In this document: positions 8,546 through 35,630 of the stretch, in pieces
Layout of the letters: each line of letters opens with the position of its first letter
Numbering within the stretch: the first letter of the stretch is position 1
Assembly (NCBI GenBank): GCA_904066235.2
Contig: CAJFCV020000003.1
Location: 806,001 to 870,000, forward strand
Length of the DNA: 64,000 nucleotides
Source: Bursaphelenchus xylophilus
Taxonomy: Eukaryota > Nematoda > Chromadorea > Rhabditida > Aphelenchoididae
Direction of reading: 5' to 3'
The notes under the pieces: generated by a model
The model's input: the letters and a program-made list of their open reading frames with translations, nothing else
The model's database searches: none
Told to the model about the DNA's origin: nothing
Position numbers and translations under genes: made by a program

Positions 8546-9010
8546 ATCCCAACAATTCCAATTAATTTTAACTGCAGCGAATCCGTGCTTTTTATACATT
8601 CGGTGTTTAACTTCTATTTATCAGCTCATTGAATCACCGGAGGAAGTTATCTTGGAAGTTCATCATATTAAATTATCCAAATTAAACATCTTGCGAGAAA
8701 GATGAAAAACACCGGACGTTTTATTTGACGTATTTATCTGGTTCTGCAGGATGACGTGTTTCCTGAAGGCAGAAGTCGAGTTTTCTGCTGTTGCTAATTT
8801 TTTCAAGGTCCGCTGACTTTTTGATGACCAATGCACGTCAAGAAAAAAGAGAAGAAAAACGGCCCCAGTGGCACCAAAACCATTTTTTTGGCATTTTTTA
8901 GACTGTGAAAATTCTTTTTCTGTCAAAATGTTTGCAATGTTTTGACATAAAGACATGCAGTAAATCGCAAGATATTGATATTAATAGAAGGTTTGAGAGT
9001 TTCTTAAGGT
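8546..9010 (-). other. conserved 5' region of oac-1 with small ORF
   Basis: An open frame at 8663-8956 (minus) containing FLLFFLDVH and GVFHLSRK is conserved upstream of oac-2 (15298-15606) and partly oac-3. It could be an upstream coding exon or a conserved leader. The predicted start at DIQGLR gives a complete domain without it, and an in-frame connection was not found. Confidence 0.35.
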
Positions 9011-9014
9011 AATA

Positions 9015-9660
9015 TTAGGTTGTCCCATAAATTGTGTCCCTCTTCGAGAGGGGCAAAATCAAACGTCTATAAAAAACGTAAGCACCAGCCAAATTTTGCA
9101 GTGTTACTACCATTTTGTAGCTGTGATCTCAGGCTTTCGTTTAATGTATCGCATGCCATATTTGGAAGAAATTACAGTAATTTAGCGCCAATTCAAAGTT
9201 GTGGAAAAAAGGTAGATTCGTGCCATCAACTTGTGTGAGCAAAAACAGGGTGCTCAGGTTTCAGAAGCTACACGAAATATCAACACCATGTTCAGCCAGT
9301 GTGCTGTGAGTCCGGTAACGGTGAAACGATGGTTTTAAAAAATTCGACCTGGCCGCGAGGACCCCTGAGACAAAGTGCGTCCATTCAGCTTTGCGAATTT
9401 ACCCTGAGGTCATTGGTAGACAAAAATCTTGAAATCAACATTCGACGCCTTTCTGGGATCGTGGTGGTGTCATAATTCTCAACGGTTAACAGTTCGATGC
9501 CGATAGTTTCAAGAAAAAGCTCGACAAAAATGTAAGATTTCTCTTTTTGTGCCCAGTTTAGGGATGAATCGCCACGTGGTGTTGTGTGAGACATCCTAGC
9601 GGACGTTGTAAAGAAGAAATCGGGAAATTTTATAGTCGAAAAATGCACTTGTCGGTTCAT
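9015..9660 (+). mobile_element. decayed mariner-family transposon, 5' part
   Basis: Begins after a TA with TTAGGTTGTCCCATAAATTG, a typical mariner inverted repeat. Downstream broken frames read TLRSLVDKNLEINIRRLS, the helix-turn-helix spacer segment of mariner transposases, preceded by a remnant with VTVKRWF. There are many stops and frame changes. The 3' end and catalytic DD(D/E) half are missing, apparently displaced by the ORF region that follows. Confidence 0.75.
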
Positions 9661-9679
9661 TATTGCATCATTTTGCAGG

Positions 9680-11402
9680 AACTGATGGAGAAATGCAAGA
9701 AAGGACTGGAGAAAGCGCGAGAAAAGCCGAACCAGGAGAAGCAGATGAAGATAAAGTTAGCTGAGAGCAGGAGGAACATCGCAAGACAGCCATCTGAAGT
9801 TGAAGTCCTCAAGAATCAACTTGTTCAACTTACGCAAGAAGTGACGCAGTTGCGTCTACGATCGTCTGAAGTTGAAGTCCTCAAGAATCAACTTGTTCAA
9901 CTTACACAGGAAATGACGCAGTTGCGTCTGCAGAACAGTTGGAGAAGAAGTTGGATAAGGCCGAAAGGGCGTTGGCTTTCAGCTCGCCCAGGAAGAGGAA
10001 GAAGATAGACGAGCTAGGCGTGAAACAGAAGGCTGAAAGAATCGCCAGATTGGAAAAACATATTGGAGAAAGCATGGAGATACGGCCGAAGACCCCTGAA
10101 AATGACGTCGAGGTGGCCCTCTTCATAAAAAATGCCTACCGGTTGACGGAATTTCAGTACAAGGGGCTACAGAAGTTCGCGGTCAACTGGTCTCCCCTTC
10201 ACCACGTCAAACAACGGGAGAAGGATCTCATAGAGGCAGCTGGTGGGTTGGACACCACGGAAGCTTCGGTGGGATGGACCAATCCGGCAATGGCATTTGG
10301 ACTGTATGTTCAACGTCTGGTGGAAACGGCCTGGTCTACCAGGATGCCTGACGCTGTGGATGTCGTGATCGTGGCCGATGGTGGAGGAGATGGAGCCGCG
10401 AACATGGTCAAAATGGGTCTGTTCATACCCACTGGAGTCCCAGCTCCTCAGAGCCCCTTCAATGTGCTTCTGCTGAGCGCGTACACGGGTAAGGAAAGTC
10501 GGGAGAACTTGATCACATTCTGTGAGAAAGGCCTCGACTTCCTGAACCGTTTGTGCAAGGACAAGAAGTTTGCGGTTGCCGGCCGCCGAAATGCATGCCG
10601 GGTCTTGCTTTGCAGTGATTTGAAGGTGGTACCTCTCATCCTGGGTATAAAGGCGGCTGGAGCAACCCAATTCTGTCTCAACTGTACCGTGGAGCGTGCA
10701 GAGCACAAGAGGGCGATGACGACGGACGCTGGGAAGAGGACTTACAGAGATCCTCTGGTAAGTCTTCTGCAGGAAGATGTAGTGTGTCCCCCACTACATT
10801 GCCTCCAGGGGTTGACAAACTCATTGGCAGAGGAGATGAAGAAGGACAACCCGGATGAATGGAAGGCCGTGTGCGATGACCTGAACATTGCACTCTCCCA
10901 TCTATCCAAATTGATGCTGAACGGCAGAGATGGGAGAAGACTGGTCAAGAGCTTAGCTGAAAATGGCAACCCACAATTTGCCATATTCAGCGACGTTTTT
11001 TCATCTTTGGACAGGATTTATGAATGGGCAACAATTGATGTCCATGGTCAAGATAACTTCACGAAGGCTGGCATTGAACGGGACATTCTTCTGCTGTCAA
11101 ACGCGTGGAGACACAGTGGACTTCGTGCGATAAACAAGTTGCACCTCCTTGAAGCCCACGTTGCCGACTTCGTCACATTACATGGTTCGTGGGGGCTATA
11201 CGGAGAACAAGGCCTGGAAAGCTTGCACCACATTGGCAACGTCGCGTCAGCTCGATGTTTCGGAAAGAATTCCGAAGTCAAGGCCAAGTTCTTCAAATCC
11301 CAATTTTTTCGATGCTTTCGCGCCGTTATCACACATAAATTGTTTTTTATTCGAATTTTGGAATCATTGTTCCTTTTTATTTGTAGAGGTTTCAGCGTAT
11401 AA
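9680..11402 (+). pseudogene. transposase-derived protein with coiled coil, frameshifted
   Basis: I do not know a name for this family. The N-terminal part (from about 9680, after a TTTTGCAG acceptor) is a heptad coiled coil containing a tandem duplication of about 75 bp (SEVEVLKNQLVQL twice). At about 9930 the frame shifts by one and continues for 480 residues. That part has features of DDE transposases with an inserted zinc region: ADGGGDG (possible first Asp), CSDLK followed about 20 residues later by CLNC, CPPLHCLQGL, and HGSWGLYGEQGLESLHH with a candidate catalytic Glu. The order recalls RAG1/Transib-like enzymes, but that is only inference. The C-terminus after 11330 is low quality and AT-rich. 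GC content and codon use differ from the oac genes on both sides, which suggests insertion. Confidence 0.55.
9789..9932 (+). repeat. tandem duplication in coiled coil
   Basis: Two copies of about 70-75 bp (near 9789 and 9864), nearly identical, each coding SEVEVLKNQLVQLTQE. It extends the heptad repeat without breaking the frame. Confidence 0.9.
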
Positions 11403-11711
11403 AACGTCAAAAACATTTTCGCGCGAATTTCTCTATTTCCACTTTTTCCGTGGCGTGCGGAGGAGCATGAAAGGGTCGACCGTCCACCGAGCTTGAGAGT
11501 CCAATTGAATGAATGTGAGCCACCGTTCAGAGCGAAGTCGAGCGGTCGGAACGGATTGCCACGCAAAGCGGTTGGTCATGGAGAACTCGGGGTATCGGTC
11601 GGGACCAGCTTGACTTGACGAACCATCGGGGTGCCGATGGTCCTAATGTCTCTCATCTACGTATAAATTAATGTTTATCGCGGTTTAATCACGTCTCTGC
11701 AGGTTGAGAGT

Positions 11712-11772
11712 TCCGCAACAACACGAACGTTACCCCCGAAACCTTCAAAACGTGCTTATCGGCAACAACAAT
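11712..11772 (+). pseudogene. legumain exon fragment 3' of oac-2
   Basis: Same scar as at 4506-4567 (CGAACGTTACCCCCGAAACC and following). It lies about 60 bp from the oac-2 stop codon. Confidence 0.75.
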
Positions 11773-11829
11773 CACAACGATTCTTAATAAGCTATTGTTT
11801 GCTCATCATCAGAATGAATCAACCATGTG

Positions 11830-14800
11830 TTAGATCACATTTATTCGCCTGAGATAGCTGATAAAATCATCGGCCATAAAAAACGAGCCAAACGCGGAAA
11901 CATGCATATAGTCCCAGTAGATTATCACGCCGTTCTCTAAAACAACACTGCATTTGTCGGTGATGCTGTTGCAGAAGGTCCGACTAAAATCGTATATGCT
12001 ACATTTGTCGCATTTCAACGTGCTCATCACCTTGTCAAGGGGCAAGTTGCGTTCGCGAGCCTTCTGAAGAAAATATTTATTTGTCGATGTTCGCTTTACC
12101 TTGTATGAAAAATTGAATTTCGAAGTGTCCTCGTTGGCTCTCTGCGCCTTTTGCAGCATTTCCACGGTGTAATCGCGGTCGGCCTTGTACTCTGTATACC
12201 CCGTGATTATTTTTTTAACGGGCAGCAAGCTGAGCTGATCGAAAAAGTATTGCATGTCGGTCCTCATCTGATTTTCGATGTAATTCTTGTCATCGACGAT
12301 TCTATGCGTCCTGCAATGGAAACCGCTGCAAATGCACTCACGGGGGAAGTAGCCCCAAGTGTGACACTCAGACTTTGACGGCTTTGCAGATGGAAAATTT
12401 AAGGAAAAACGACTGCTCTCCTTACCAATTTGCGCAAATTGCTGTCCGCAGTTTCATCTACTGAAATCCGTCGGGCAGCCTACCAAAAATACAGTAGCAA
12501 AAATGGGCGTCGCACTTGGGACACACTTGCTTCGGAAAACCCTTACGCATATCGAATAACCAGAAGATCTATGGGACGGCCAAAGTTCTTGACAATGTTC
12601 AAAAAATGCCTTGAATGATCGCCATCAAAATCTTGCTGGAAAGGAACTGTTGCGGCGGTATACACAAGGGTCAAACGTTTGTAATGGCTACGAAACCTTG
12701 GCCACAACCCGTAATACAAGTCGGAACTTATGCTGTTGCCAATCAAAAGGACTTCTAGATCACCTGTTCCCTTAAAGTTTATATTTATCATCAATTCAAC
12801 TATCAGTCTGTCGAGAAAACAATGAGCACATTGTTGCTGAGCCGACCTGGTCGCTGAAGTGAAAGCAATTTGATCTTGCCGCAATGCAATTAACTTTGCG
12901 TTTTTCGATGCGACAGAGTGTTCGTAATTTTGCCGGCAGACAAATAGCTGGATTTACCTCAACCTGGTGCGAAATTTTTAACGCCTTCGTTTCGTTGTTC
13001 TTCACTGCATGCCCATAGCCAAAATGAAGCCAGAAGTCGTGGAGTCGGCCATTATAATCAGCCAACTGTGTGTTTGTCATGTTGAGTTGGTCCATGTGTT
13101 CATAGTCGAAGACACGACTCATCAAGAACTCCTCGGGTTTCGTTATATTATCTGTATAGTTTTCGTGGGGCGCGGAAACTTGAGGCTGCTGGACGTTGCT
13201 GTTGAAGGAAATAGTTGCCGCCAAGCACATGTACAACGCGACGATAAGCAGAAACAGCTTTGCTTTACAGTTTATTGATTGATTTAATTTTTTAAAGGAG
13301 CTTTCTACCAAAACACTTAGCAGAAAGCATGCTTGAAGAATGAGGATTCCATCTGAAAAGGCAGAAAGATATTGTCGATCAGTCAATCGTAGACATGACC
13401 CGGGCCGGCCCGTGCCGGACCGGGGCTGGGCCGAAATTTCGGTCAATTTCGGCCCGGCCCGAAATATATAGTTGCAATCCGGGCAGGCCTGACCGCTGCC
13501 GCCCGCGGGTCTAGACTTTCGGCCCAGCCCGGCCCGTAATAGACATAGCTCGTTGGCCGTCTCGTCGGTCTGAAGGGTTCCGGCCAGCCCGGCTCGTTTC
13601 AAATTTACTTCGGCCCGGCCCGGGCCGGCCCATTGAAACAAAAGTCTCCCCAAGTCTAACCCCCTCAATTTTTTCTGTCATCATGTAAATGGATAAATAC
13701 CGTGCTCCGTAACTAAAAAAAACAAAAATACCTTTAAAAAGCCAATTGTGTCTTGACATTGCGCTTATTTTCATTAGCAAACCCAATTTTCTGAATTTTA
13801 ACTAGTCCGAGCGAGTATCCATTTCCTCTCCGGCGATGCGATTTTTGAAGCGACAGCGCTGGTCTTATTTTCCCGACAGACTGATATTTACTATGTATTC
13901 CAGTATAATACCTAATTCAATACGCCAAATAAATTCCTTACCGCGAATCGAGATTGTGCTACTGTTAGCTGTATACTTGAAAAAAACCAATGCTGGCCAG
14001 TGTACCAAATACAGCGAGTACGAGATGTTGCCAACATATACGAACAATTGATTCTCCAAAAAACTTTTTCCGCCTGTTGCAAGCAATACGCCAGCCGTGA
14101 CCGTCGCCGCTAGTCGATGGATCCACACGAAATTTGAGACGCGAATTTGCAACAAAATAATTAGCAGAGCGCAGAAGACTGTTTTGAGGTTGCTGCCGTG
14201 TTCCGAGCAAGGGGAATGGATTGACAAGGCCGACAAGTCGTGTTTTTCGCCTATTTTATCCGAAGAAATTTTCGAATATTGTGGCGGAGCCTTCTTCTTG
14301 AAGTAATGGACAATAAATCCAATGCAGAATTGCCATACTCGGCACAGTGTGTTCATGTGGGCCACGTTCAGATCTAGAATGTTACGAAATCATGTATCAA
14401 TTGCAGCAAAAGACGAAAGGTCTTCTGTTATCAGTCTGCATGGAAATACATTTCGATACAAAGTGCGAAATTGTGGGTTCTTGTGCACAGTGCAGACCGC
14501 GACAAAATTTCCGTGCACTTTACAGAAATACCAATAGATTTCCATAATAAAAAATTGCCCTAAATTTATGTTAACACCAACCTGTGCTGACCGCTTGCAA
14601 CAAAAAGCTGCACGCTCCAATTGCCGTCAAGACGGCTGTTCCGGCACGTGGCTTCCAACTGTCCGCCTTTTTGCACAAGAAATACAACAACGGCACAAAC
14701 AGATAAAACTGTAGCTCCACCGACAACGACCAAGTATGCAGAAAAACAGGATACTGATTATTCGTGTCAAAGTAGCCGTGTTTCGGAAGGTTGAAGATGT

Positions 14801-15214
14801 TTGAGGCAAATAAAGCCGCGGTGAGCGATTCGGTCACAGTTTTTTGGATGTATTGATAGTCAAAGATATGTAGAGCCCAAGCTGTTGTGCATGTCACAAT
14901 GAACAAATATGTGGGCACAATCCGTTTGACCCTTCGGAAATAAAAATTTTGAATCGACTCGGCCGAAAAAGCGGCCGAATCCATCAACATGTGCATTAAA
15001 AATCCAGAAATCACGAAGAATCTGAAACGGTATGCCAAAGAAATATATACTAGTATTTTCATAAAGTACGTACACATTTTTCGCCTTTTTTTGCAAGCTG
15101 AATCACTTACACGTCCACTCCAAGATATCCCGCTGGAAAGTGCTGAGGCCACACATGAAAACAGAGGACATAAAATATGGCAACACAGCGGAGTCCTTGA
15201 ATGTCCAAAAACAT
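11830..15214 (-). CDS. acyltransferase-3 / SGNH membrane protein, oac-2
   Basis: Second tandem copy, same family and exon plan as oac-1. The first exon is 15111-15214 (104 nt, start ATG 15214, DIQGLR block). Exon 2 carries FFVISGF, KRIVPTYLF and HTWSLSVELQFYLF. Exon 3 (to about 13945) carries ISYSLYLVHWPAL. The fourth exon ends near HQVE, and the SGNH exon has IGNSIS. The last exon ends in WDYMHVSAFGS and RRINVI before the stop. Protein identity to oac-1 and oac-3 is very high in all exons and no stop interrupts the frames, so it looks functional. Intron 4 keeps an M1 MITE, intron 3 a GC-rich repeat plus an M1 terminus. Probably an O-acyltransferase in a cell or organelle membrane; substrate unknown. 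Confidence 0.85.
12801..12945. mobile_element. M1 MITE, oac-2 intron 4
   Basis: Orthologous to the copy at 5546-5690; the inner sequence and degraded ends match. Confidence 0.8.
13390..13650. repeat. GC-rich GGCCCGG repeat in oac-2 intron 3
   Basis: About 260 bp, the same word set as 6135-6325 but rearranged, with an extra block (GGGCAGGCCTGACCGCTGCC). Confidence 0.8.
13850..13888. mobile_element. M1 MITE terminus
   Basis: Only one end is present, TTATTTTCCCGACAGACTGA, in intron 3 of oac-2. Confidence 0.65.
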
Positions 15215-15297
15215 ATCCCAACAATTCCAATTAATTTCAACTGCGGCGAATCCGTGCTTTTTATACACTTGGTGTTGCTCTTTATCAGCTCATTGAA

Positions 15298-15606
15298 TCA
15301 GCTGAGGAAGTTATCTTGGAAGTTTATCATATTATCCAAACTAAAAATCTTGCGAGACAGATGAAAAACACCAGATGTTTTATTTTCCATATTGATCTGC
15401 TTCTGCAAGATAATATGCTTCCTGAGGGCAGAAGTCAACTTTTCTGCTGTTGCTAATTTTTTCAAGGTCCCCTGACTTTTTGCTGACAAATGCACGTCAA
15501 GAAAAAAGAGAAGAAAAACGGCTAACATACAGTAATCTGAGAAACTTGGTTTCCAAAAAATTGAATGCTGAATCACCAAAAACGTATATACAGAATTTCG
15601 GGTCAT
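15298..15606 (-). other. conserved upstream ORF of oac-2
   Basis: About 100 codons with FLLFFLDVH, GTLKKLATAE and SGVFHLSRK. It is conserved with the ORF upstream of oac-1, but its link to the oac frame is not resolved. Confidence 0.35.
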
Positions 15607-15805
15607 TACCTCTTTTTATGATGCCATAAGACATAAAATTCCAAAAAGGACACACTTACGCAAATTTATACCTTCCGGGCAGATTTTGGGGGAAATATTT
15701 TGAGCGTTTGTGTTAAACAAGTGCCTACAGTCATCTTGAACCAAAAGATTCAAAATCTGTCGGAAAATCAAGGGTTGCCGTGGGCCGGGTCTTGAGCATC
15801 CTATG

Positions 15806-16312
15806 GCCGGAGCTCGGCTGTTATTTACTTGATAAAAGTAGATCACGCCTGCGTGGAAGCCCCGCCTATAGTAGTATGTCCTCATATAGCAACTTGTTGC
15901 GAAAGTTTCACCAACTTTTTTCCATCCTAAATTGAACGATCCAAAGACTCAAAACGACGTCCGCCGAAATCTGATGTCTACGCCGCGCCTCCGCGGATGT
16001 GCGTAAAATCGAAAATTTGAAAAAGCACACAGTAAAATCCACGGAGGTGTAACGTAAACTTAATTTTGGCCGTTGTAACAGCGTATCCGCCATGTAAAAC
16101 AAATGATTTTAAAAAAGGCCCCAAATGTCTCCGCCGAGAACTGGCCTCTCCGCCGACGAAAAATTTTTTTACTGTATACAAAACCTCCCAAATTCTATTT
16201 TTAGAAACAAGGAGAATTTCCGCGATAACTCCCAAGAGCTCAAAGATATTCGCAAAAAGTTTCTTTTTTTTTGGATTTGATCTACTTTTATCAAGTAAAT
16301 AACAGCCGAGCT
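15806..16312. mobile_element. about 500 bp element with 40 bp inverted ends
   Basis: GCCGGAGCTCGGCTGTTATT near 15808 continues to AAAGTAGATC and is repeated inverted at about 16273-16312. The interior has no clear ORF. It lies in the spacer between oac-2 and oac-3, next to the legumain scar. Confidence 0.7.
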
Positions 16313-16330
16313 CCGGCTGTTATTTACTTG

Positions 16331-16375
16331 AAATTACCCCCGAAACCTTCAAAACGTGCTTATCGGCAACAACGA
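16331..16375 (+). pseudogene. legumain exon fragment 3' of oac-3
   Basis: Third copy of the scar (ATTACCCCCGAAACCTTC and following), truncated on its left by the inverted-repeat element. Confidence 0.7.
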
Positions 16376-16433
16376 TCACAACGGTTCGTAATAAGCTATT
16401 GTTTGCTCATCATCAGAATGAATCAACCATGTA

Positions 16434-19400
16434 CTAGATCACATTTATTCGCCTGAGATAGCTGATAAAATCATCGGCCATAAAAAACGAGCCGAACGCG
16501 GAAACATGCATATAGTCCCAGTAGATTATCACGCCGTTCTCTAAAACAGCACTGCATTTGTCGGTGATGCTGTTGCAGAAGGTCCGACTAAAATCGTATA
16601 TGCTACATTTGTCGCATTTCAACGTGCTTATCACCTTGTCAAGGGGCAAGTTGCGTTCGCGAGCCTTCTGAAGAAAATATTTATTTGTCGATGTTCGCTT
16701 TACCTTGTATGAAAAATTGAATTTCGAAGTGTCCTCGTTGGCTCTCTGCGCCTTTTGCAGCATTTCCACGGTGTAATCGCGGTCGGCCTTGTACTCTGTA
16801 TACCCCGTGATTATTTTTTTAACGGGCAGCAAGCTGAGCTGATCGAAAAAGTACTGCATGTCGGTCCTCATCTGATTTTCGATGTAATTCTTGTCATCGA
16901 CGATTCTAAGCGTCCTGCAATGGAAGCCATTGAAGATGCACTCACAAGGGAAGTTGCCCCAAGTGTGACACTCAGACTTTGACGACTGTGCAGATGGAAA
17001 TTTTAAGGAAGAACGTGGCGTCGCACTTGCCTGCTCTCCTTGCCAATTTGCGCAAATTGCTGCCCGTGGTTTCATCCACTAAACTCCGCCGGGCAGCCTA
17101 CCAAAAATACAGCCGAAAAAATGGGCGTCGCACTTGGGACATACTTGCTTCGGAAAACCCTTACGCATATCGAATAACCAAAAGATCTATGGGACGGCCA
17201 AAATTCTTGACAATGTTCAAAAAATGTCTCGAATGATCGCCGTCAAAATCTTGCTGGAAAGGAACTGTTGCGACGGTAAACACAAGGGTCAAGCGTTTGT
17301 AATGGCTACGAAATCTTGGCCACAACCCGTAATACAAGTCTAAACTTATGCTGTTGCCAATCAAAAGGACTTCTAGATCACCTGTTCCCTAAAAGTTTAT
17401 ATTTATCATCAATTCAAGTATCAGTCTGTCGGGAAAACAATGAGCACATTGTTGCTGAGCCGATCTGGGCGCTGAAGTGAAAGCAATTCGGTCTTGCCGC
17501 AATGCAATTAACTTTGCGTTTTTTGATGCGACACAATGTTCGTTATTTTGCCGGCATACTGATAGCTGGATTTACCTCAACCTGGTGCGAAATTTTTAAC
17601 GCCTTCGTTTCGTCGTTCTTCACTGCATGCCCATAGGCAAAATGATACCAGAAGTCGTAGAGTCGGCCATTATAATCAGCCAACTGTGTGTTTGTCATGT
17701 TGAGTTGGTCCATGTGTTCATAGTCGAAGAGGCGACTCATCAGGAACTCCTCGTGTTTCGTTATATTATCTGTCCCGTTTTTGAGAGCCGCGGAAACTTG
17801 AGGCTGCTGGATGTTGCTGTTGAAGGAAATAGTTGCCGCCAAGCACATGTACAACGCGACGATAAGCAGAAACAGCTTTACTTTGCAGTTTATTGATTGA
17901 TTTAATTTTTTAAAGGAGCTTTCTACCAAAACACTTAGCAGAAAGCATGCTTGAAGAATGAGGATTCCATCTGAAAAAGCAGAAAGATATTGCCGATCAG
18001 TCAATCGTAGACATGGCCCGGACCGGGCCGGCTCGTGCCGGGCCGGGGGCTGGGCCGAAATTTCGGTCCGTCGGCAGGATTTCAGATCGGCCGGCCCGCC
18101 GCACCATCTCCAGCCCCTCGGCCGGTCGGCGTTTCGGCCCGGCCCGGAATATATATGTAGTTTCAATCCTGAATCTCGAAGCAAAAATTGGGTTTGCTAA
18201 TGAAAATAAAACGCAATGCCAAGTAGAGGTGGCAATCGGGCCTGAGCAGATCTAAAAAAGCCCCGGGCAGGCCTGACCGCTTCGGCACGCGGGCGAGCCA
18301 AGATTTTCGGCCCGGCCCGTCGGCCTGAAGGGTTCCGGCCGGCCCGGCTCGTTTCAAATTTCAGTTGGCCCAGCCCGTTTCAAATTTACTTTGGCCCGGC
18401 CCGGGCCGGCCCAGTGAGACAAAAGTCTGCCCAAGTCTAACCTTATACCTAATTTTTTTTTGACATTACGCTTATTTTCATTAGCAAACCCAATTTTCGC
18501 TTAGAGATTCTGGATTTTAACTATTCCGGTTTTTGAAGCGATTATTTTCCCGACAGACCGATATTTACAATAGGTCTGTTACAGTATAATACCTAATTCA
18601 ATACGCCAAATAAATTCCTTACCGCGAATCGAGATTGTGCTACTGTTAGCTGTATACTTGAAGAAAACCAACGCGGGCCAGTGTACCAAATACAACGAGT
18701 ACGAGATGTTGCCAACATATACGAACAATTGATTCTCCAAAAAACTTTTTCCGTCTGTTGCAAGCAAAACGCCAGCCGTGGCCGTCGCTGCGAGTCGATG
18801 GATCCACACGAAATTTGAGACGCGAATTTGCAACAAAATAATTAGCAGAGTGCAGAAGAGTGTTTTGACGTTGCGGCCGTGTTCCGAGCAAGGGGAATGA
18901 ATTGACAAGGCCGACAAGTTGTGTTTTTCGCCTATTTTATCCGAAGAAATTTTTGAATATTGTGGCGGAGCCTTCTTCTTGAAGTAATGGACAATAAATC
19001 CAATGCAGAATTGCCATACTCGGCACAGTGTGTTCATGTGGACCACGTTTAGATCTAGAATTTTATGAAATCATGTATCAGTGGCAAACAAAGACGAAAG
19101 GTCTTCTGTTATCAGTCTGCAAGGATAATAATGAGCATTCTGTCGCAACGAAACTCGCATTGCCTCCGAGAAAATGAATTGTGTCAAGGCAGAATCGAAT
19201 CATTCTTCTTTTCAGCAACGCGATTGGCGCAGCGCGGTTGTGTTCATTATTTTCCCGCTAGACTGATATCAGTATTTTCATATATCGGAGGTGCATTTCA
19301 GCGCGCAAGTCTGTCCAGACCCTTCGGATTTAGTCCAAAGTTAACTTTTTAAGTTTTGAACCTGGAGTCTTTTTAAGGGTACACTAGGGAGTGCTTTTAG

Positions 19401-20610
19401 GCATTTACAACCGTTTTTAATACACTGCCGCACATCAAACTGAGGAGTCCGGTGACCGGAAAAGACTCTTCGCTATTGGTTTTTTACACTTCGTCTGATT
19501 TCGCAGAGAAAGAGGGAAAAAAGACACGCAAAAGCGTACTCTCTCGCCCCGAAAGTTCCCCATTTCTTCCCCGACAAAACGTTTTTTCGCGTCTTTTTTT
19601 GCAAATTACCAATTCATTCACCGGACTGTTTTCACTTATCTCAGTTTGATTTTTTATAGATCTTGCGCTAGCATTGGCTATTTTGACATCCTAAAGCAAA
19701 CTTAGGATGTCAAAAATAAATCAATATGATCAAATAGACGGTTTCGTCTTCAGAACTAGCTGACTTCAACCGATAACTCTTAAAAATACCTAGTAAAATA
19801 TACGAAAATACCTGAACTGGCAGTTCTGTAAAAATTTCCCTTCTTAGAGCAAAAATGTGTCCTTTCTCCCCCCTGGGCGAATTTAGTCAAAAGTTGAGTT
19901 GGGGGTTTTTGTGCACAGCGCAGACCGCGACAAAATTTCCATGCACTTTATGAAAATACCAATAGATTTCCGCAATAAAAAATTACAAGCACTAAAAGTA
20001 TGTTAACTCTAACCTTGGCTGAGCACTTGCAACAAAAAGCTGCACGCTCCAATTGCCGTCAAGACGGCTGTTCCGGCACGTGGCTTCCAACTGTCCGCCT
20101 TTTTGCACAAGAAATACAACAACGGGACAAACAGGTAAAACTGCAGCTCCACCGACAACGACCAAGTATGCAGAAAAACAGGATACTGATTATTCGTGTC
20201 AAAGTAGCCGTGTTTCGGAAGGTTGAAGATGTTTGAGGCAAATAAAGCCGCGGTGAGCGATTCGGTCACAGTTTTTTGGATGTATTGATAGTCAAAGATA
20301 TGTAGAGCCCAAGCTGTTGTGCATGTCACAATGAACAAATATGTGGGCACAATCCGTTTGACCCTTCGGAAATAAAAATTTTGAATCGACTCGGCCGAAA
20401 AAGCGGCCGAATCCATCAACATGTGCATTAAAAATCCAGAAATCACGAAGAATCTGAAACGGTATGCCAAAGAAATATTGCCTTTTTTGCAAACTGAAAA
20501 ACTTACAGGTCCACTCCAAGATATCCCGCTGGAAAGTGGTGCGGCCACACATGGAAACAGATAACATAAAATATGGCAACACAGCGGAGTCCTTGAATGT
20601 CCAAAAACAT
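16434..20610 (-). CDS. acyltransferase-3 / SGNH membrane protein, oac-3
   Basis: Third tandem copy. Exons: 20507-20610, 20014-20453, 18623-19054, 17575-17970, an SGNH exon from near 17398 down to about 17162, and a last exon from near 16985 to the stop at 16434. Exons 1-3 have the same lengths as in oac-1 (104, 440, 432 nt). Motifs: DIQGLR, FHVWPHHFP, GYLGVDLFFVISGF, RRVKRIVPTYLF, HTWSLSVELQFYLF, ISYSLYLVHWP, IGNSIS and WDYMH. The first intron is 53 nt here against 89 nt in oac-1. An acceptor that joins GVD to FFVISGF is unambiguous and confirms the model. As in the other copies, the splice between the SGNH exon and the last exon is not settled. No NRF domain is visible. Confidence 0.85.
17419..17564. 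mobile_element. M1 MITE, oac-3 intron 4
   Basis: Orthologous to 5546-5690 and 12801-12945. Starts TATCAGTCTGTCGGGAAAAC. Confidence 0.8.
18010..18420. repeat. GC-rich GGCCCGG repeat in oac-3 intron 3
   Basis: The longest of the three blocks, about 400 bp and visibly internally duplicated (GGGTTCCGGCCGGCCCGGCT and related words recur). Confidence 0.8.
19110..19268. mobile_element. M1 MITE, oac-3 intron 2
   Basis: Starts ATCAGTCTGCAAGGATAATA and ends TATTTTCCCGCTAGACTGAT. More complete than the oac-1 counterpart. Confidence 0.75.
19432..19650. mobile_element. MITE M4 (CAAACTGAGGAGTCCGG ends), oac-3 intron 2
   Basis: About 220 bp with inverted ends ATCAAACTGAGGAGTCCGGT and CCGGACTG...CTCAGTTTGAT. 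Related copies at 50325-50548 and 51553-51784. Confidence 0.75.
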
Positions 20611-21629
20611 ATCCCAACAATTCCAATTAATTTCAACTGCGGCGAAATACTTTTCATGAAATTTGTGTTGCTCTTTATCAGCTCATTGAATCAGTGGAGG
20701 AAGTTATCTTGGAAGTTTATCATATTATCCAAACTAAAAATCTTGCGAGACAGATGAAAAACACCATATGTTTTATTTTCCGTATTTATCTGCTTCTGCA
20801 AGATAACGTGTTTAATTAAGGAAAAAGTCGCCTTTTCCTGCTGTGGCTAATTTTCTAGAGGTGTGCGGGCCGATTAATGCCAAAACTTTCATGATTCCTG
20901 CTTCTACGGCTAGCGGGCAATACAGGATCTTACAAAAAAAAGGTGAAGGAAAGTCGGAGGCTATATCTTCCGGCGGAGGCGGCGCAGGGACTTCGCTTTT
21001 GGAATATGCATTTTTAAGCGGCATTAATTTTGGTCTGTGAAACAACAAGATTTTAAAGTGCAAACTGAGGTCAATGCGGCCTTCTGAAATAGGGGCATTT
21101 CTACCCAGAAAAAGGTCCATTTTAAAAATAGAGAATATTTGGGGATGCCGGTTGTACCCCAAAATTATAGAATGTCATGCCCTCTACGTTAGAAATAGGC
21201 AGGAAGCTCTATGTGCCAAAATCTGCAAGAGAGCGCAACATTAAAGTTTGTTGGAAGCTTGCTGGGTAAAAAAACATGCGCAGCTCGCCGATGCCACGTT
21301 TGGGCTCGGCTTCCGAGTTGCTCCCTATTCTTTTCAGCTGCCTTTCAGCTAATTTTCAGTCAGCGCATTGGTCCTTGCATAGCCACTGTCTGAAGGAACA
21401 AGCATGATTTTTTTGTCGACCGGTAAAGCGAAGCTTATACGTAGAAGTGAGCGAAAAAGCTGGTAGAGCTAGGCATGACTCTTTTATGCCCTTAACCGCC
21501 TCAAACATAATTGATAAATCAATCAACAGACAAAAAAGAATTTGACAAAAAGCAAACATGATTTTTTTATTACTTTAATCCACGCAGTTATTTAATTATT
21601 CGGAGAGATTTACAGAATATTTGGAGGTA
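20611..21629. other. spacer 5' of oac-3
   Basis: 20641-20820 resembles the sequence upstream of oac-1 and oac-2, then homology stops. The remainder (20830-21629) has only short ORFs that I cannot assign. Confidence 0.4.
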
Positions 21630-24279: not shown

Positions 24280-25801
24280 ATGTGGTTGTCCTTTCTGTTC
24301 GTGGTGTGTCTTGCCTCAATTGTCTCGTCGTAAGTGGAACGTTTTGCCGATCAGATAGCGTTCAGATCCGTGAGTCCAAACTTTTTCCAACACCCCGAAG
24401 ACAGTGGCAAGATACACGCTGTGATAGCGGCCGGATCCCTCGGCATGTGGAATTATCGCCATCAGGCAGCCGCCTGTCATGCATACCATGTCTTAAGAAA
24501 CCATGGGGTTGCGGAAGAAAACATCATCTTGATGATGCCCGATGATGTTGCTAATCATAAGAAGTAAGCGTCGCCTACCGAAAGCCACCTCTTTTTGTAG
24601 CAACCCGGCCCCCGGCAAGCTCTACCACAACCCCGCCCGTGATACTGACGTGTACAAAGGGTGCAAGGTTGATTATCGCGGAGCGGACGTAAACCCCACC
24701 ACGTTTATGAACGTCTTGACCGGGAACGACGTTGGAGAGGGACCGGTGCTGAACAGCACAAAGAAGGACAAGGTGTTTGTGTATTTTGTAGATCATGGTG
24801 ACCACGGAACGTTAGGCTTTCAGTTCAACGCCACTAATTTCGAAGTTCTCACCGTGCAAGACCTGAACAACACCCTGTCCGAGATGACGCGGAAAGGCAT
24901 GTACAAAGAACTGGTGTTCTACGTGGAAGCTTGTTTCTCCGGAAGCATGTTTCAGCCTATCGCGTCAAACTTTGAGAATCTGTACGCCGTCACTTCCACC
25001 AACGAGGCGGAATTCGCTTTTGGCGATTACTGTGTCGCCGATTGGGACTTGTGCCTTGGCGACGAGTTCTCTGTCGCTTGGATGGAATACTCCGACGCCC
25101 ACGATCTTCGGCACACCACCCTACAAGAGCAGTTCGCCGCTGTGAAAGCTCGAACCTATTGCAGCCATGTTCAGCAGTTTGGGAACTTGAAGATTTCTGG
25201 CGAGAACATTGGCGACTTTCAAGGCCTAGCAGACGCCGCCGAGGTTATAACGTCGGTAAGTTTATATATTCATGTTAGGTACGATCTAGGGTGTTCGATT
25301 GAAGCTAGCCTGCTTTCGTTTTTTACAAAAATATCATGTTGCTTAGTTCAATGACAGTCACCTCTGCGATAGTGCTGATCCTATCCTCTTTCAAATGCAA
25401 TTGAAACTCACAATGTTGGAAAAAAGCAGCGATGCTGAAGAATTGGCACAACTGAGAGCAGAGATCGCCGACTACATGGCTTATCAACAATCAACTGAAA
25501 GCGAGCTTAACAGCTTCATCGACAAAGTTGCCACCACAGGAGAATTGAGAGCCTTAGTAACGAGGCCTTTACCGATTGTCAACTTGGAGTGCCATCACAA
25601 GGTTGTCAACTACTTCAGCCAAAACTGTGGTAGTATCGGCATGGTATGCTATAGTCTTGAATTTTACCGGCCTTAAATTTTTAGAGTTCACGCCGGCTTC
25701 TCTTTAAGATTGTCAACTTGTGCTATGCAATGAGTTCGGATGAGATTATTGAACATATGGCTGACCATTGGCAAGTACAGCGTGACACTTATCCTTACTA
25801 A
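24280..25801 (+). CDS. legumain-like cysteine protease B
   Basis: Asparaginyl endopeptidase (family C13), cleaving after Asn; expected in the secretory or endolysosomal route. Exons 24280-24329, 24366-24563, 24601-25255, 25347-25643 and 25685-25801 give 438 residues, the usual legumain length. Residues 1-17 are a signal peptide. [10 protein letters not shown] and ACHAYHVL open the caspase-like fold; catalytic His148 is in YFVDHG and Cys194 in VEACFSGS. The C-terminal pro-region has [12 protein letters not shown] and ends [15 protein letters not shown]. Introns 1 and 2 are only 36 and 37 nt. Intron 1 removes an in-frame TAA just after the signal peptide. Intron 2 joins NHK to NNPAPG, the conserved NPxPG site, so it is required. 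Confidence 0.9.
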
Positions 25802-29378: not shown

Positions 29379-30891
29379 ATGTGGTTGTCCTTTCTGTTCG
29401 TGGTGTGTTTTGCCTCAATCGTCTCGTCGTAAGTGGAACGTTTTGCCGACCAGACCGCGTTCAGGTCCGTGAGTCCAAACTTTTTCCAACACCCCGAAGA
29501 CGGTGGCAAGATACACGCGGTAATAGCGGCCGGTTCCCTTGGCATCGGGAATTACCGCCATCAGGCGGACGCGTGCCATGCATACCATGTCTTAAGAAAA
29601 CATGGGGTTGAGGAGGAAAACATAATCTTGATGATGGCCGATGATGTTGCCAATGACAAAAAGTAAGCGTCGCATCCGAAATCACTTCTGTTCGTAGAAA
29701 CCCAACCCCCGGCAAGCTCTACAACAATCCCGCCCGTGATACGGACGTGTACGAAGGGTGCAAGGTCGATTATCGTGGAGCGGACGTGAATCCCACCACG
29801 TTTATGAACGTCTTGACTGGGAACGACGTTGGAGAGGGACCGGTGCTGAACAGCACCGAGAAGGACAAGGTGTTTGTGTATTTTGTGGACCATGGTGAAG
29901 ACGGAGTGTTAGTCTTTCAGTCCAACGACACTGACAACGTTCTCTCCGTGCAAGACTTGAACGACACATTGTCCGAGATGACGCGGAAAGGCATGTACAA
30001 AGAACTGGTGTTCTACGTGGAAGCTTGTCTCTCCGGAAGCATGTTTCAGCCTATCGCGAAGAACTTTGAGAATCTGTACGCCATCACCGCCGCGAACGGA
30101 GAGGAATCCTCTTATCCCGATTACTACGTCGACGATTGGAACATCTACCTTGGCGACGAATTCTCCGTCGCTTGGATGGAATACTCCGACGCCCACGATC
30201 TTCGGCACACCACCCTACAAGAGCAGTTTGCCGCTGTGAAAGCTCGAACCTATTGCAGCCATGTTCAGCAGTTTGGGAACTTGGAGATTGCTGGCGAGGA
30301 CATTGGCGACTTCCAAGGCCAAGCCGACGCCGCCGAGGTTATAACGGCGGTAAGTTTATATATTCATGTACGATCGAGGGTGTCGGGGCTAGCTTGCTTT
30401 CGGTTTTTTTACGGTACTATATTATGTTGCTTAGTTCAACGACAGCCACATGTGCAATCGTACAGATCCAACCCTCCTTCAAATGCAAATGAAACTCACA
30501 AGGCTGGAAAAAAACAGCGATTCAGAAGAATTGGCACAACTAAGAGCAGAGATCGCCGACTACATGGCTTATCAACAATCAACTGAAAACGAACTTAACA
30601 GCTTCATCGACAAAGTTGCCACCACGGAAGGATTGAGGGCCCTAGTCACCAGGCCTTTACCGATCGTCAACTTGGAGTGTCATCACAAGGTGGTCAACTA
30701 CTTCAGCCAAAACTGTCGCAGTATCACAAAGGTACGCTATGGGGTCTTGAATTTTACTGACCTTATATTTTTAGAGTCCACGCGGGCTTCTCTTTAAGAT
30801 TGTCAACTTGTGCTATGCAATGAGTTCGGATGAGATTATTGAACATATGGCTGACCATTGGCAAGTGCAACGTGACCCTTTTCCTTACTAA
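29379..30891 (+). CDS. legumain-like cysteine protease C
   Basis: Close paralogue of B, 437 residues. Exons 29379-29428, 29465-29662, 29698-30349, 30435-30731 and 30775-30891. Signal peptide, then [22 protein letters not shown], whose [10 protein letters not shown] core matches vertebrate and plant legumains better than gene B does. Catalytic His148 (FVDHGEDG) and Cys193 (VEACLSGS) are intact. The NPTPG motif forms across intron 2. Introns 1 and 2 are 36 and 35 nt. Exons 2, 4 and 5 have the same lengths as in B. It lies in tandem with B and about 500 bp before receptor 1. Confidence 0.9.
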
Positions 30892-32664: not shown

Positions 32665-32787
32665 GGGCCTCATTTTCAGCAGACTTGGTCGGCTACATCT
32701 GTAAATCTGTTTCTTGGCAGCTTAATGAATCTTGATAATCGAAGATTTCGCATAAATGTACTAGGCACTAAAAATAAATTTATATGT

Positions 32788-32890
32788 GCTTGGCAGATGT
32801 AACCATCAAGCGTTCCAAAATTTCTCTTTATCAGCCACTGAGAATTCAGAGCCGAAACATGAGCTAACCTCAAACTTGGGTTAATAAACC
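32788..32890 (-). ncRNA. spliced-leader RNA gene, copy 1
   Basis: 103 nt. The 22-nt leader starts GGTTTATTAACC at 32890 and ends CAAGTTTGAG, followed by a GTTAG splice donor. TTAACC in the leader can pair with GGTTAG across the donor. A second hairpin is centred on CTGAATTCTCAG. The Sm site AAATTTTGG precedes the 3' hairpin, which here is GCTTGATGG / CTGCCAAGC and has one mismatch (A-C) and wobble pairs. Donates a leader to mRNAs by trans-splicing, as part of an SL snRNP. Confidence 0.9.
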
Positions 32891-32928
32891 GAAGAAACCC
32901 CCCTTTCCTTGAAGCTTTGATCACTCCT

Positions 32929-32947
32929 CTCGTTTCTTTTCGAATGG
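32929..32947 (-). promoter_or_regulatory. proximal element of SL RNA copy 1
   Basis: CCATTCGAAAAGAAACGAG (minus strand) at -57 to -39 from the leader start. It is conserved at the same distance in copies 2 and 5, the position of the PSE of snRNA-type promoters. Confidence 0.65.
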
Positions 32948-33171
32948 AGAACCGCACTTTTTTGGAGGCAATTGGTTTCTCTAGCGCTCTCCCATCTTTC
33001 GCAGTGAGAGCGCAGTCTCTCACCCCGCCCTCTTTTTCCTCGACTCTATCGCTGAATATAATGTCTTGTTTGTGCGTGACAACTAGTCTGTCGAAAGCAG
33101 TGGAATACGTGCTAAACCAAGAAGTCGGCATGAAACCTACCGCACACTGACCTTGTTCATTTTGTTCATGT

Positions 33172-33274
33172 GCCCGGCAGATATAATCGCCAAGCGTTCC
33201 AAAATTTCTCTTTATCAGCCACTGAGAATTCAGAGCCGAAACATGAGCTAACCTCAAACTTGGGTTAATAAACC
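33172..33274 (-). ncRNA. spliced-leader RNA gene, copy 2
   Basis: 103 nt, starting at 33274. Leader, donor, central hairpin and Sm site are identical to the other copies. The 3' hairpin is GCTTGGCGA / CTGCCGGGC, mostly paired with G-U pairs. It lies 282 bp from copy 1 in the same direction. Confidence 0.9.
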
Positions 33275-33311
33275 GAGGAAGTCTCCCTTCGTTGGGGCTC
33301 TCCTTATTCCC

Positions 33312-33331
33312 ATCGTTTCTTTTCGAATGAG
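33312..33331 (-). promoter_or_regulatory. proximal element of SL RNA copy 2
   Basis: CTCATTCGAAAAGAAACGAT (minus strand), -57 to -38. A second conserved block with CAATTGACTCCCAAAAG lies just upstream. Confidence 0.65.
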
Positions 33332-33737
33332 GAACTCCGTCTTTTGGGAGTCAATTGGTTTCTCTGACGCTCTCTTCTCGCATAGCTTTACGCCGTCGGA
33401 TGCGCTGTTTTTCTGTATGTCTCTTATAAAGTGCAATCTCTCATTTGTGTGTAGGATCCGAAACACACAATGATCGCAGAGACAATGGGATCATGAGGGA
33501 AGAAGAAAGATCACAGAATATATGCTATTTTTTACGCTTCATGGAAGATACAGATCTCTGCAAAACGATTTCAGCTGCAGAGAAATGCTTTCTCGATCAA
33601 GAAAAACTGAGCCCTCGTATTTTACCAAAAATAAGCTTTTTTACCCCTTTTCAAAAGTTCATTGTAAAGAACATTTTCAACTTTTTTTTTATCGAATAAA
33701 ACCGTTTATGATGAAAATCTCGTGTTGTTTTACATGT

Positions 33738-33840
33738 GCTCGGCGAATGTAATCGCCAAGCGTTCCAAAATTTCTCTTTATCAGCCACTGAGAATTCAGA
33801 GCCGAAACATGAGCTAACCTCAAACTTGGGTTAATAAACC
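33738..33840 (-). ncRNA. spliced-leader RNA gene, copy 3
   Basis: 103 nt, starting at 33840. The 3' hairpin GCTTGGCGA / TCGCCGAGC is fully paired (9 pairs, one G-U). Compared with copy 4 (GCTTGGCGG / CTGCCGAGC) the last pair changes on both sides, A-T to G-C, and the one before goes from G-C to G-T. That favours selection on structure. The upstream flank differs from copies 1, 2 and 5. Confidence 0.92.
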
Positions 33841-33880
33841 GAAGAATTTCTCTGCCATTCGCAATTCCAGCACCCTCCCC

Positions 33881-33898
33881 TTCGCTTTTCTTCTGGGG
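33881..33898 (-). promoter_or_regulatory. diverged proximal element of SL RNA copy 3
   Basis: CCCCAGAAGAAAAGCGAA (minus strand) at -58 to -41, partly matching the element of copies 1, 2 and 5. Confidence 0.45.
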
Positions 33899-34160
33899 AA
33901 CAGCGTTTTTTCGGAGTTAATTCGCTGCTCTCGGGCCCTCTTGTTATCTGTGCATCCACAAGAAGTCTTTTCCCTGCGCTGTTTTTCTCTGCGCCCCCAA
34001 ATAGAAAGGTGCACTCTGCGAGTGAAAATCGAACGCCTAGTATTCGTTGCGTATAATTATGTAGATAACAGGAGGGTTTAGAGAAAGAGGCAGGTCAAAA
34101 AATATCGGGGAAGAAGGAAAACCTCCAGAGAGAAGAATTATCTCCTCTAATGGCCTCTTT

Positions 34161-34180
34161 CCCAGACGGAAGTTGCGACT
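34161..34180 (+). promoter_or_regulatory. diverged proximal element of SL RNA copy 4
   Basis: CCCAGACGGAAGTTGCGACT at -57 to -38. Shares CCCAGA with copy 3 at the same spacing. Confidence 0.45.
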
Positions 34181-34217
34181 GCAAGTTTAGAAAAGCCGAG
34201 TAGAAAATACTTTCCTC

Positions 34218-34320
34218 GGTTTATTAACCCAAGTTTGAGGTTAGCTCATGTTTCGGCTCTGAATTCTCAGTGGCTGATAAAGAGAAATTTTGGAACGCTT
34301 GGCGGTTACATCTGCCGAGC
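34218..34320 (+). ncRNA. spliced-leader RNA gene, copy 4
   Basis: 103 nt, starting at 34218, opposite in direction to copies 1-3. Leader and donor identical. 3' hairpin GCTTGGCGG / CTGCCGAGC with loop TTACAT, nine pairs including wobbles. Followed by ACATATAAA. Confidence 0.92.
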
Positions 34321-34580
34321 ACATATAAAACCGGAAAATACTTTAGAGTTCTCTTTTGTTATACAGAGAACCCTAATTGATACGGAGAATTTCTTTTCCT
34401 AGTCTACTCCCAAAATGCTAGTGAGTTTAGACAAGACATTATATGTGTATGCAATTGCTTTTCAAACTCCTAAACAAAGCAGACTTGCAGAGAAATTTAG
34501 AGCGACGACTGATTATCCGTTTTATCAGAGGAAAAGAGAGAGCGCCAGAGAAACCAATTGACTCCCAAAAGAAGCAGTGT

Positions 34581-34600
34581 CCCATTCGAAAAGAAACGAG
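34581..34600 (+). promoter_or_regulatory. proximal element of SL RNA copy 5
   Basis: CCCATTCGAAAAGAAACGAG at -57 to -38, nearly identical to copies 1 and 2. Confidence 0.65.
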
Positions 34601-34637
34601 AGAAACAAATCAAGCTTCAACGAAGGGAGGATTCTTC

Positions 34638-34740
34638 GGTTTATTAACCCAAGTTTGAGGTTAGCTCATGTTTCGGCTCTGAATTCTCAGTGGCTGACAA
34701 AGAGAAATTTTGGAACGCTTGGCGATTGCATCCGCTGGGC
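34638..34740 (+). ncRNA. spliced-leader RNA gene, copy 5
   Basis: 103 nt, starting at 34638. A single change in the stem after the second hairpin (GACAAAGAG for GATAAAGAG). 3' hairpin GCTTGGCG / CGCTGGGC keeps eight pairs by G-U pairing. The upstream 100 bp are nearly the same as those of copies 1 and 2, so these three are recent duplicates in opposite orientations. Confidence 0.9.
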
Positions 34741-35630
34741 ATATAAATATAAAACAGGAGCAAGAAAATTTTCTGAAAGTTTCTGTATCTGAACGTTCTA
34801 CAGAAAAAAGTTGACCGAAGCCAAAAAAGGTACCAACTACAAATAATTGGAATAAAAGATGAGGTAAATGTAAAAATTTTTGCTGTCGCACAAAACGTAG
34901 ACACCCAGATGACCTGCCTTCGCAAAAAAATTGGGCAAGATATGCCCCTGATTTCGGAGCAATCCTTGGTCGACTAGCGGTGTATCCCTCAAATATCTGA
35001 TCGAATAGACTACAAAGCCAAAATTCGTTGTTTACATGATCTTATAATCAATCCCCCTTTTCGTAAGAATGATTTGTAGCTTCAAACCCTTAAAAACTTT
35101 CATGGTGAATATTGTCATGTATAACATGCTGACGTTATGGCACACTGTGAATACCAACTTTTTTACCCGGTAAGTCATAGATTAGATGCAAAAGAGCATG
35201 AATGGTAAAGAAAACCCGCAATTCCTACAATCGCAATTGTTTTCAGTTAAAAAAACGCCTGTTTTAAACCCAAATTTTCAAATCGCATCAACTTTTTTGG
35301 ATATTTCCTTTATGGACCAATGCTAATAGAACCTCCAAATCAGATTTCTCGATTTAAGTAAAAAATTTTTGTATCTGATGTGCAATACACCCACCTTCTT
35401 GTATATACGTATACCTGACCAACTCTGACGTCCAAAAAACAAAATTAATCGCAAAATTACAAAAATAACCTGTACAAATTTCGTCCTCTGTATTATAATT
35501 TGGACAGCTGCATGGTTTCCGTCAATCGTCACGCAAAAAATATTACACAAGATTTGTCTGCGTGATCTGAAAGTGTATTTAAACCGGGGATCATTCGGGA
35601 TATTCATCACATTCATCGGTTTAATCAAGC
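34741..35630. other. spacer before FAR-like 1; possible minus-strand exon
   Basis: At about 35420-35560 (minus) a frame with TKFVQVIFVILRLILFFG resembles a membrane-anchor exon at about 37000 (SKFVTVVIFILLIVLFSW). These could be start exons of an unrecognised type II membrane protein family, but no further exons were found. A short TATA-like TATTTAAACC lies 55 bp before the FAR-like ATG. Confidence 0.3.

What the first reader, a model, noticed from the sequence alone, without database searches (positions are those of the whole stretch)
32788..34740. Cluster of five spliced-leader RNA genes with a non-SL1 leader
Seen: five 103-nt units with a shared 22-nt start (GGTTTATTAACC, ending CAAGTTTGAG), a GT donor, an Sm site AAATTTTGG and a 3' hairpin. 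Known: nematode SL1 has AATTA before CCC, and its SL RNA has the same order of parts. The leader here differs at two positions (TTAA for ATTA). Three genes point left and two right, in a 2 kb array of their own and not inside a 5S rRNA unit in this window. This looks like a dedicated trans-splicing donor cluster with a variant leader.
Basis: partly seen in the sequence, partly recalled or inferred. Interest (0 to 1): 0.95.

Follow-up and report, generated by a model that had tools for sequence, protein, structure and literature searches.

The report
Nematode spliced-leader RNA gene cluster
The window holds five genes for the small RNA that supplies the first 22 letters of many nematode messenger RNAs, in a version particular to this worm; the same 22 letters also sit inside the end repeats of some of the worm's retrovirus-like elements, an indirect sign that this version is really used.

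Summary
Five SL RNA genes (about 106 nt) lie at 32785-34743, three on the minus and two on the plus strand. Each has the leader GGTTTATTAACCCAAGTTTGAG, a GU donor, an Sm site and a 3' hairpin. The window is part of a 78.25-Mb nematode genome, inferred to be Bursaphelenchus.

The cluster is one of 17 groups (five of them single genes) with 52 such units on one chromosome-size contig. The window has no 5S gene, but 4 of the 17 groups have a lone 5S gene inside or within about 1.2 kb. Exact canonical SL1 is absent; three other SL RNA types lie in two regions with 5S arrays. So this leader is probably the species' main SL1.

The same leader sits at the likely U3/R boundary of both LTRs of eight BEL/Pao elements in two families, and is kept at 20-22 of 22 positions in five decayed relatives. 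SL1 beside Pao elements is reported in Brugia (PMC7181701); here the elements carry this host's own leader. I read that as indirect evidence of use. No RNA reads could be examined.

New variant of a known kind; interest moderate.

The parts
32785..32890 (-). SL RNA gene 1; leader 32869-32890, Sm site 32815-32823; weakest Rfam score and weakest of the three folds made
   Evidence: Rfam SL1 40.6 bits; own model 130.2 bits (this gene was in the training set); fold z -1.23
33169..33274 (-). SL RNA gene 2; leader 33253-33274, Sm site 33199-33207
   Evidence: Rfam SL1 45.4 bits
33735..33840 (-). SL RNA gene 3; leader 33819-33840, Sm site 33765-33773
   Evidence: Rfam SL1 46.4 bits; fold z -4.35
34218..34323 (+). 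SL RNA gene 4; leader 34218-34239, Sm site 34285-34293
   Evidence: Rfam SL1 46.1 bits; fold z -3.73
34638..34743 (+). SL RNA gene 5; leader 34638-34659, Sm site 34705-34713
   Evidence: Rfam SL1 42.3 bits
33885..33935 (-). Conserved upstream block (PSE-like, -95 to -45) of gene 3; the same block lies at 32935-32985 (gene 1) and 33319-33369 (gene 2), minus strand
   Evidence: 52 distinct contexts: mean 0.96 bits per position against 0.27 further upstream
34123..34173 (+). Conserved upstream block (PSE-like, -95 to -45) of gene 4; for gene 5 at 34543-34593

Best explanation
The five units are genes for this nematode's main SL1 RNA. Each is transcribed on its own from a PSE-like promoter block about 60 bp upstream and starts at the first G of the leader. 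The RNA binds Sm proteins and donates its 22-nt leader to pre-mRNAs at the GAG|GU donor. The leader differs from canonical SL1 at positions 7 and 9, and the intron side of stem I differs with it. The leader is used on Pol II transcripts, and BEL/Pao retroelements carry it at the likely start of their R region, most simply because trans-spliced element RNA was once reverse transcribed. Shown: gene anatomy, copy number, covariation, conserved upstream block, absence of exact canonical SL1, leader in both LTRs. Inferred: transcription, snRNP assembly, trans-splicing, and the route into the LTRs.
For: Copies: 70 exact leaders in the genome, reversed-pattern control 0; 52 SL RNA-like units on C3, 47 of 52 with leader, Sm site and a stem of at least 5 bp. 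Structure: on a 47-row alignment 94.6% of cells pair against 90.6% in shuffles (0 of 500 reach it) and 45 cells change on both sides against 17.7 (0 of 500). Against the Rfam consensus, leader position 9 U to A is matched by intron position 25 A to U, and 7 A to U by 27 U to G. Promoter: TTCCCC starts at -60 in one example each of types 2, 3 and 4; a looser form lies at -75 to -40 in 43 of 52 type-1 contexts (no shuffle control); no TTCCC within 110 bp upstream of the leader in either LTR. Main SL1: no exact canonical SL1, no leader of the C. elegans or A. avenae SL2 form with donor. Use: leader pairs flank 8 of 27 Pao protease matches, with 4-bp target-site duplications for seven of those eight elements; in five decayed LTR-A relatives found by LTR similarity the leader keeps 21, 22, 22, 22 and 20 of 22 positions while the downstream part keeps 80, 76, 74, 70 and 47%; Fisher p 0.067, 0.005, 0.003, 0.001 and 0.0001.
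Against: No transcript data. The Rfam score is below the gathering threshold. Other types are also numerous (72 of type 4; 23 of type 3) and could be main donors. Five of 52 units fail the intactness test. Part of the structure statistics can come from relatedness of the copies: two of five measures were not extreme (34 and 71 of 500 shuffles), and gene 1 folds no better than many shuffles (23 of 200). For the LTR argument: 19 of 27 Pao matches have no listed leader pair; the LTR search query contained the leader, which favours relics that keep it; one LTR-B relic has lost the first 13 nt.
Confidence: 0.86

Rival explanations
1. Specialised second leader: the dispersed type does the job of SL2 (resolving operons) while a 5S-linked type is the general SL1. 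Dispersed SL2 genes and 5S-linked SL1 genes are the arrangement in C. elegans (recalled).
For: Of the four types this one alone was not seen in a regular 5S tandem array.
Against: Lone 5S genes lie inside or near 4 of its 17 groups, so it looks like a scattered SL1-5S descendant. The leader shares its last 13 nt with canonical SL1; no leader of the C. elegans or A. avenae SL2 form plus donor was found. It is the leader found in LTRs; exact type-3 and type-4 leaders were found only on C6 at 4.85-5.07 Mb and C1 at 1.17-1.61 Mb, and all 19 type-2 units fetched have the SL donor.
Confidence: 0.08
2. Largely silent repeat family: amplified SL RNA gene copies with little expression, the other types doing the work.
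For: Five of 52 units fail the intactness test; type 4 has 72 copies.
Against: Leader 1.99 bits per position and upstream block 0.96 bits against 0.11 bits downstream of the gene (the leader figure is partly by selection, as units were found by it); both-side changes in the 3' hairpin.
Confidence: 0.05
3. For the LTR copies: the leader is there as a DNA promoter or initiator element and not because of trans-splicing. In Ascaris the 22-nt leader is itself a promoter element of the SL RNA gene (recalled, not looked up).
For: The leader sits where the LTR transcript should start: position 221 of 346 in family A and 167 of 214 in family B, with AATAAA a few bases downstream.
Against: No TTCCC in the 110 bp upstream of the leader in either LTR; in three of the five decayed LTR-A relatives the base after the leader or the next one already departs from the SL gene.
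Confidence: 0.35

Closest known systems
Nematode SL1 RNA (Rfam RF00198)
   Same: Order of parts, 22-nt leader, GU donor, Sm site, 3' hairpin; full-length match
   Different: Leader positions 7 and 9; matching difference on the intron side of stem I; score below gathering; scattered groups rather than a regular 5S array
5S-linked SL1-like genes of Bursaphelenchus xylophilus (Kikuchi 2011, PMC3164644; passages seen)
   Same: Probably our types 2-4: SL1-like sequences in 5S tandem repeats (25 reported there)
   Different: The passage mentions only copies in 5S tandem repeats; the 52 C3 units are not in one. Its supplement was not seen
Variant SL1 leaders of Aphelenchus avenae (PMC2825203; passages and Table 3 seen)
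   Same: SL1-like 22-mers with changes in the AATTA stretch, found on mRNAs
   Different: None of the 12 listed leaders equals this one
Brugia malayi Pao elements flanked by SL1 (PMC7181701; passages seen)
   Same: SL1 copies beside Pao elements, sometimes two on the same strand
   Different: There canonical SL1; here the host's own variant, shown to lie inside both LTRs and kept in decayed copies

Membership tests
Nematode SL1 RNA (RF00198) | 22-nt leader ending CCCAAGTTTGAG followed by a GU donor | tested here: met
   5 of 5 in the window
Nematode SL1 RNA (RF00198) | Sm site between stem II and the 3' hairpin | tested here: met
   AAATTTTGG in 5 of 5 in the window, 48 of 52 on C3
Nematode SL1 RNA (RF00198) | Leader/intron stem plus further hairpins | tested here: met
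   gene 1 weak alone (z -1.23); genes 2 and 5 not folded alone
Nematode SL1 RNA (RF00198) | Score at or above Rfam gathering threshold (75 bits) | tested here: not met
   40.6-46.4 bits, E down to 2e-6. A curator's cut-off, not a biological feature; described here as a diverged SL1 RNA
Nematode SL1 RNA (RF00198) | Exact canonical leader GGTTTAATTACCCAAGTTTGAG | tested here: not met
   Two differences; no exact canonical copy in the genome. Known SL1 leaders of A. avenae also differ from it
Nematode SL1 RNA (RF00198) | Leader found on mRNAs | not testable with these tools
   No reads held; indirect evidence from LTRs
Nematode SL2 RNA | SL2-type leader with donor (pattern ACCCAGTNNCNCAAGGT, covering C. 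elegans SL2 and three of the A. avenae variants) | tested here: not met
   0 exact matches in the genome
BEL/Pao LTR elements (for the LTR copies) | Pao protease, reverse transcriptase and paired LTRs | tested here: met
   Pfam on one copy of each family (reverse transcriptase of B at 29.4 bits, cut-off 29.6); LTR pairs for 8 elements

The most novel reading that the evidence does not exclude
BEL/Pao elements of this nematode use the host's spliced leader as the start of their R region. Trans-splicing puts the SL RNA's 22 nt on the 5' end of the element RNA, reverse transcription copies it, and the encoded leader in the 3' LTR receives the first strand transfer. The leader is thereby rewritten from the host each cycle and follows the host's leader as it changes between species.
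Probability: 0.25. Interest if true: 0.8.

Novelty: new variant of a known kind. Interest (0 to 1): 0.5.

Why it matters
It gives the likely main spliced leader of a Bursaphelenchus-type nematode, two positions away from the canonical SL1 sequence used as a primer in the one B. xylophilus cloning paper looked at (PMC3430268, passages). It shows four SL RNA types in one genome, where the passage read on the B. xylophilus genome mentions only SL1-like copies in 5S repeats. The LTR copies offer a DNA-level hint of which leader a species uses, and make the link between trans-splicing and retroelement replication testable by comparing host and element leaders across nematodes.

Tried and rejected
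The 18S rRNA search to name the species failed twice and was not repeated; the genus is inferred instead from GH45 cellulases, six chromosome-size contigs and 78 Mb. That GH45 is confined to Bursaphelenchus and relatives among nematodes is recalled. Rejected: chance; the window group as part of a 5S repeat (no 5S in the window); an SL2-type leader; the LTR copies as retroposed SL RNA genes (25 nt shared, in each of two LTRs compared with one SL gene; no TTCCC element upstream). The same draft said that no type-1 gene lies by a 5S gene; one search shows lone 5S genes by some groups. For these reasons, and because the Cer1 result against renewal was added, I lowered the SL2 rival from 0.10 to 0.08 and the renewal reading from 0.30 to 0.25. 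Not settled: one or two captures of the leader by the LTR families, since LTRs A and B share a 37-bp stretch at 92% identity that runs through the leader into AATAAAG. Other Pao families: 19 of 27 matches have no leader pair among the listed matches within 12 kb (one search listed 100 of its 102 matches), and their LTRs could not be read. Literature searches: leader strings, no paper; none.

Full report
What is there. The window has five copies of a unit of about 106 nt with the 22-nt leader GGTTTATTAACCCAAGTTTGAG, a GU donor, the Sm site AAATTTTGG and a 3' hairpin. The chance expectation for the 12-nt start is 0.02 in the window. Rfam SL1 is the best match of all five, full length, at 40.6-46.4 bits; the family's gathering score is 75. 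Three genes point left and two right.

Genome. The window is C3:806001-870000 of a 78,253,340-bp genome in 8 contigs. Glycosyl hydrolase family 45, which among nematodes I know only from Bursaphelenchus and close relatives (recalled), gives 17 exon-level matches, against none in 14 control genomes (the controls named are prokaryotes). Six contigs have 12-15 Mb. This points to Bursaphelenchus; the species was not established (18S search unanswered). A fatty acid and retinoid binding protein fragment in the window scores below its cut-off (23.8 against 29.2 bits).

Four SL RNA types. Type 1 (this leader) has 52 SL RNA-like units, all on C3, in 17 groups if a gap of 3 kb parts them; five groups are single genes. 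By script 47 of 52 have leader, Sm site and a stem of at least 5 bp. Type 2, GGTTTAATAACCCAAGTTTGAG, has 19 units (four with a T to C change near the end) and type 3, GCTATTTATAGCCTAATTTGAG, has 23 exact copies; both lie on C6, chiefly in a 5S array with a 911-bp repeat. Type 4, GGATTAATTTCCCAAGTTAAAG, has 72 exact copies (one with T at position 3), on C1 at 1.17-1.61 Mb, of which 53 follow each other at 531-bp steps in a 5S array. Exact canonical SL1 has no copy; a pattern for the C. elegans and A. avenae SL2 forms with donor has none. The first base of the type-3 leader is inferred from the 22-nt length and the distance to the -60 element. A decayed type-1-like gene lies on C2.

5S genes. 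The window has none. In the fetched type-1 stretches, and a further 1-kb stretch on C3, single 5S genes at gathering score lie in or by 4 of 17 groups: two in the 2742983-2745188 group, one each by the 642957-644820 and 635447-636294 groups, and one about 1.1 kb beyond the 615245-616838 group. Only flanks of roughly 0.5-1 kb were seen, so more may lie further out, and the genome-wide 5S search scored only 47 of 2181 candidates. In all five cases the 5S gene is on the strand opposite to the neighbouring type-1 genes, as in the repeats of the C6 and C1 arrays that were read. The C3 groups may therefore be a scattered descendant of a 5S-SL array; this is inference.

Structure. The alignment has 47 of the 55 distinct units (43 of type 1, 4 of type 2); left out were six type-1 units with a damaged leader, Sm site or hairpin and two type-2 units. 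A four-helix model has 94.6% of cells paired against 90.6% in shuffles and 29-45% when slid; 45 cells change on both sides against 17.7, 25 of them in the 3' hairpin and 19 in stem II. Two other measures are not extreme: pairs with a change on both sides 8 against 5.6 (34 of 500 shuffles reach it) and further pair types 25 against 22.7 (71 of 500). Stem I hardly varies inside the genome, so its support is the comparison with the Rfam consensus: pair 9-25 has swapped U-A for A-U, and 7-27 A-U has become U-G (in type 2 pair 7-27 is not formed). RNAalifold on its own prefers other pairings for the leader. Folded alone, genes 3 and 4 have z -4.35 and -3.73 and gene 1 only -1.23; genes 2 and 5 were not folded alone.

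Promoter. Over 52 type-1 contexts the block -95 to -45 has 0.96 bits per position, -5 to -1 has 1.66 and the leader 1.99 (partly by selection), against 0.27 further upstream and 0.11 downstream of the gene. TTCCCC starts at -60 in one example each of types 2, 3 and 4, and a looser form lies at -75 to -40 in 43 of 52 type-1 contexts, without a shuffle control. Eight of ten groups of three or more genes are ordered minus to plus, pointing outward (P 0.0008 if strands were random); related groups may share this by descent, so the value is a rough guide.

LTR copies. Of the 70 exact leaders, 51 are type-1 genes, 16 lie in pairs at the ends of eight BEL/Pao elements and 3 in decayed LTRs. Family A: LTR of 346-347 bp, leader at 221, five elements. 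Family B: LTR of 214 bp, leader at 167, three elements. LTRs of an element are 99.5-100% identical, and 4-bp target-site duplications can be read for seven of the eight; the eighth (L053) lies in a tandem repeat and is unclear. Pfam on one copy of each finds Pao protease, reverse transcriptase (in B just below cut-off) and DUF1759; B also has a phlebovirus-type glycoprotein domain. Eight of 27 Pao protease matches in the genome have such a leader pair. The LTR-A search also found five decayed relatives. In these the leader keeps 21, 22, 22, 22 and 20 of 22 positions and the next 104-105 keep 80, 76, 74, 70 and 47%; Fisher p 0.067, 0.005, 0.003, 0.001 and 0.0001. The tests treat sites as independent, and the search query contained the leader, which favours relics that keep it. 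One decayed relative of LTR B has lost the first 13 nt of the leader.

Reading. Compared with one SL gene, LTRs A and B share the leader plus three bases (25 nt) and lack TTCCC in the 110 bp upstream, so they look unlike copied SL genes. The simplest source is trans-spliced element RNA. This was proposed for Brugia, where 60 of 120 SL1 copies outside gene arrays lie within 1 kb of Pao elements (PMC7181701, passages seen). In Brugia the leader is canonical SL1; here it is this host's variant. That is indirect evidence that the type-1 leader is used on Pol II RNA. Whether the elements renew it each cycle, merely transcribe it, or use it as promoter DNA is open. A result against renewal in another family: in C. 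elegans the spliced 2.4-kb RNA of the Gypsy-type element Cer1 was found with and without SL1, but the 8-kb RNA that encodes GAG and POL was not trans-spliced at that site (PMC3315495, passages seen).

Known and new. Kikuchi 2011 reports 25 SL1-like sequences in 5S repeats of B. xylophilus and that SL2 trans-splicing appears not to exist there (passage seen); a scattered type is not mentioned in the passages seen, nor in the titles and abstract starts listed. The exact leader string occurs in no paper of the library searched. Variant SL1 leaders are known in A. avenae (passages seen). The window finding is therefore a new variant of a known kind.

Noticed in passing
L051-L058; C1, C2, C3, C6: Two BEL/Pao families carry the type-1 leader in both LTRs, followed within a few bases by AATAAA.
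   Followed up: partly
L031, L033 (C6 5S array): Several 911-bp repeats of the C6 5S array carry two SL RNA genes with different leaders, one of them starting GCTATTTATAGCC, which like GGTT....AACC could pair with itself.
   Followed up: partly
L073, L074 (C1 5S array): A second 5S array with 531-bp repeats carries an SL RNA type with leader GGATTAATTTCCCAAGTTAAAG.
   Followed up: partly
L038, L039, L042, L076 (C3): Lone 5S genes lie in or near 4 of the 17 type-1 groups, on the strand opposite to the neighbouring SL genes as in the arrays.
   Followed up: partly
C3 SL gene groups; window 32785-34743: Eight of ten groups with three or more genes have all minus-strand genes left of all plus-strand genes.
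   Followed up: partly
window 4609-20626, minus strand: Three similar acyltransferase-3 plus SGNH copies in tandem (open frames, by eye; Pfam on two pieces).
   Followed up: no
window 3415-4209 and 29657-30583, plus strand: Legumain-type (Peptidase C13) open frames; a third, similar by eye, lies at 24536-25354.
   Followed up: no
L071 (C2:7361329): A decayed type-1-like SL RNA gene away from C3, leader starting TATTTATT.
   Followed up: no
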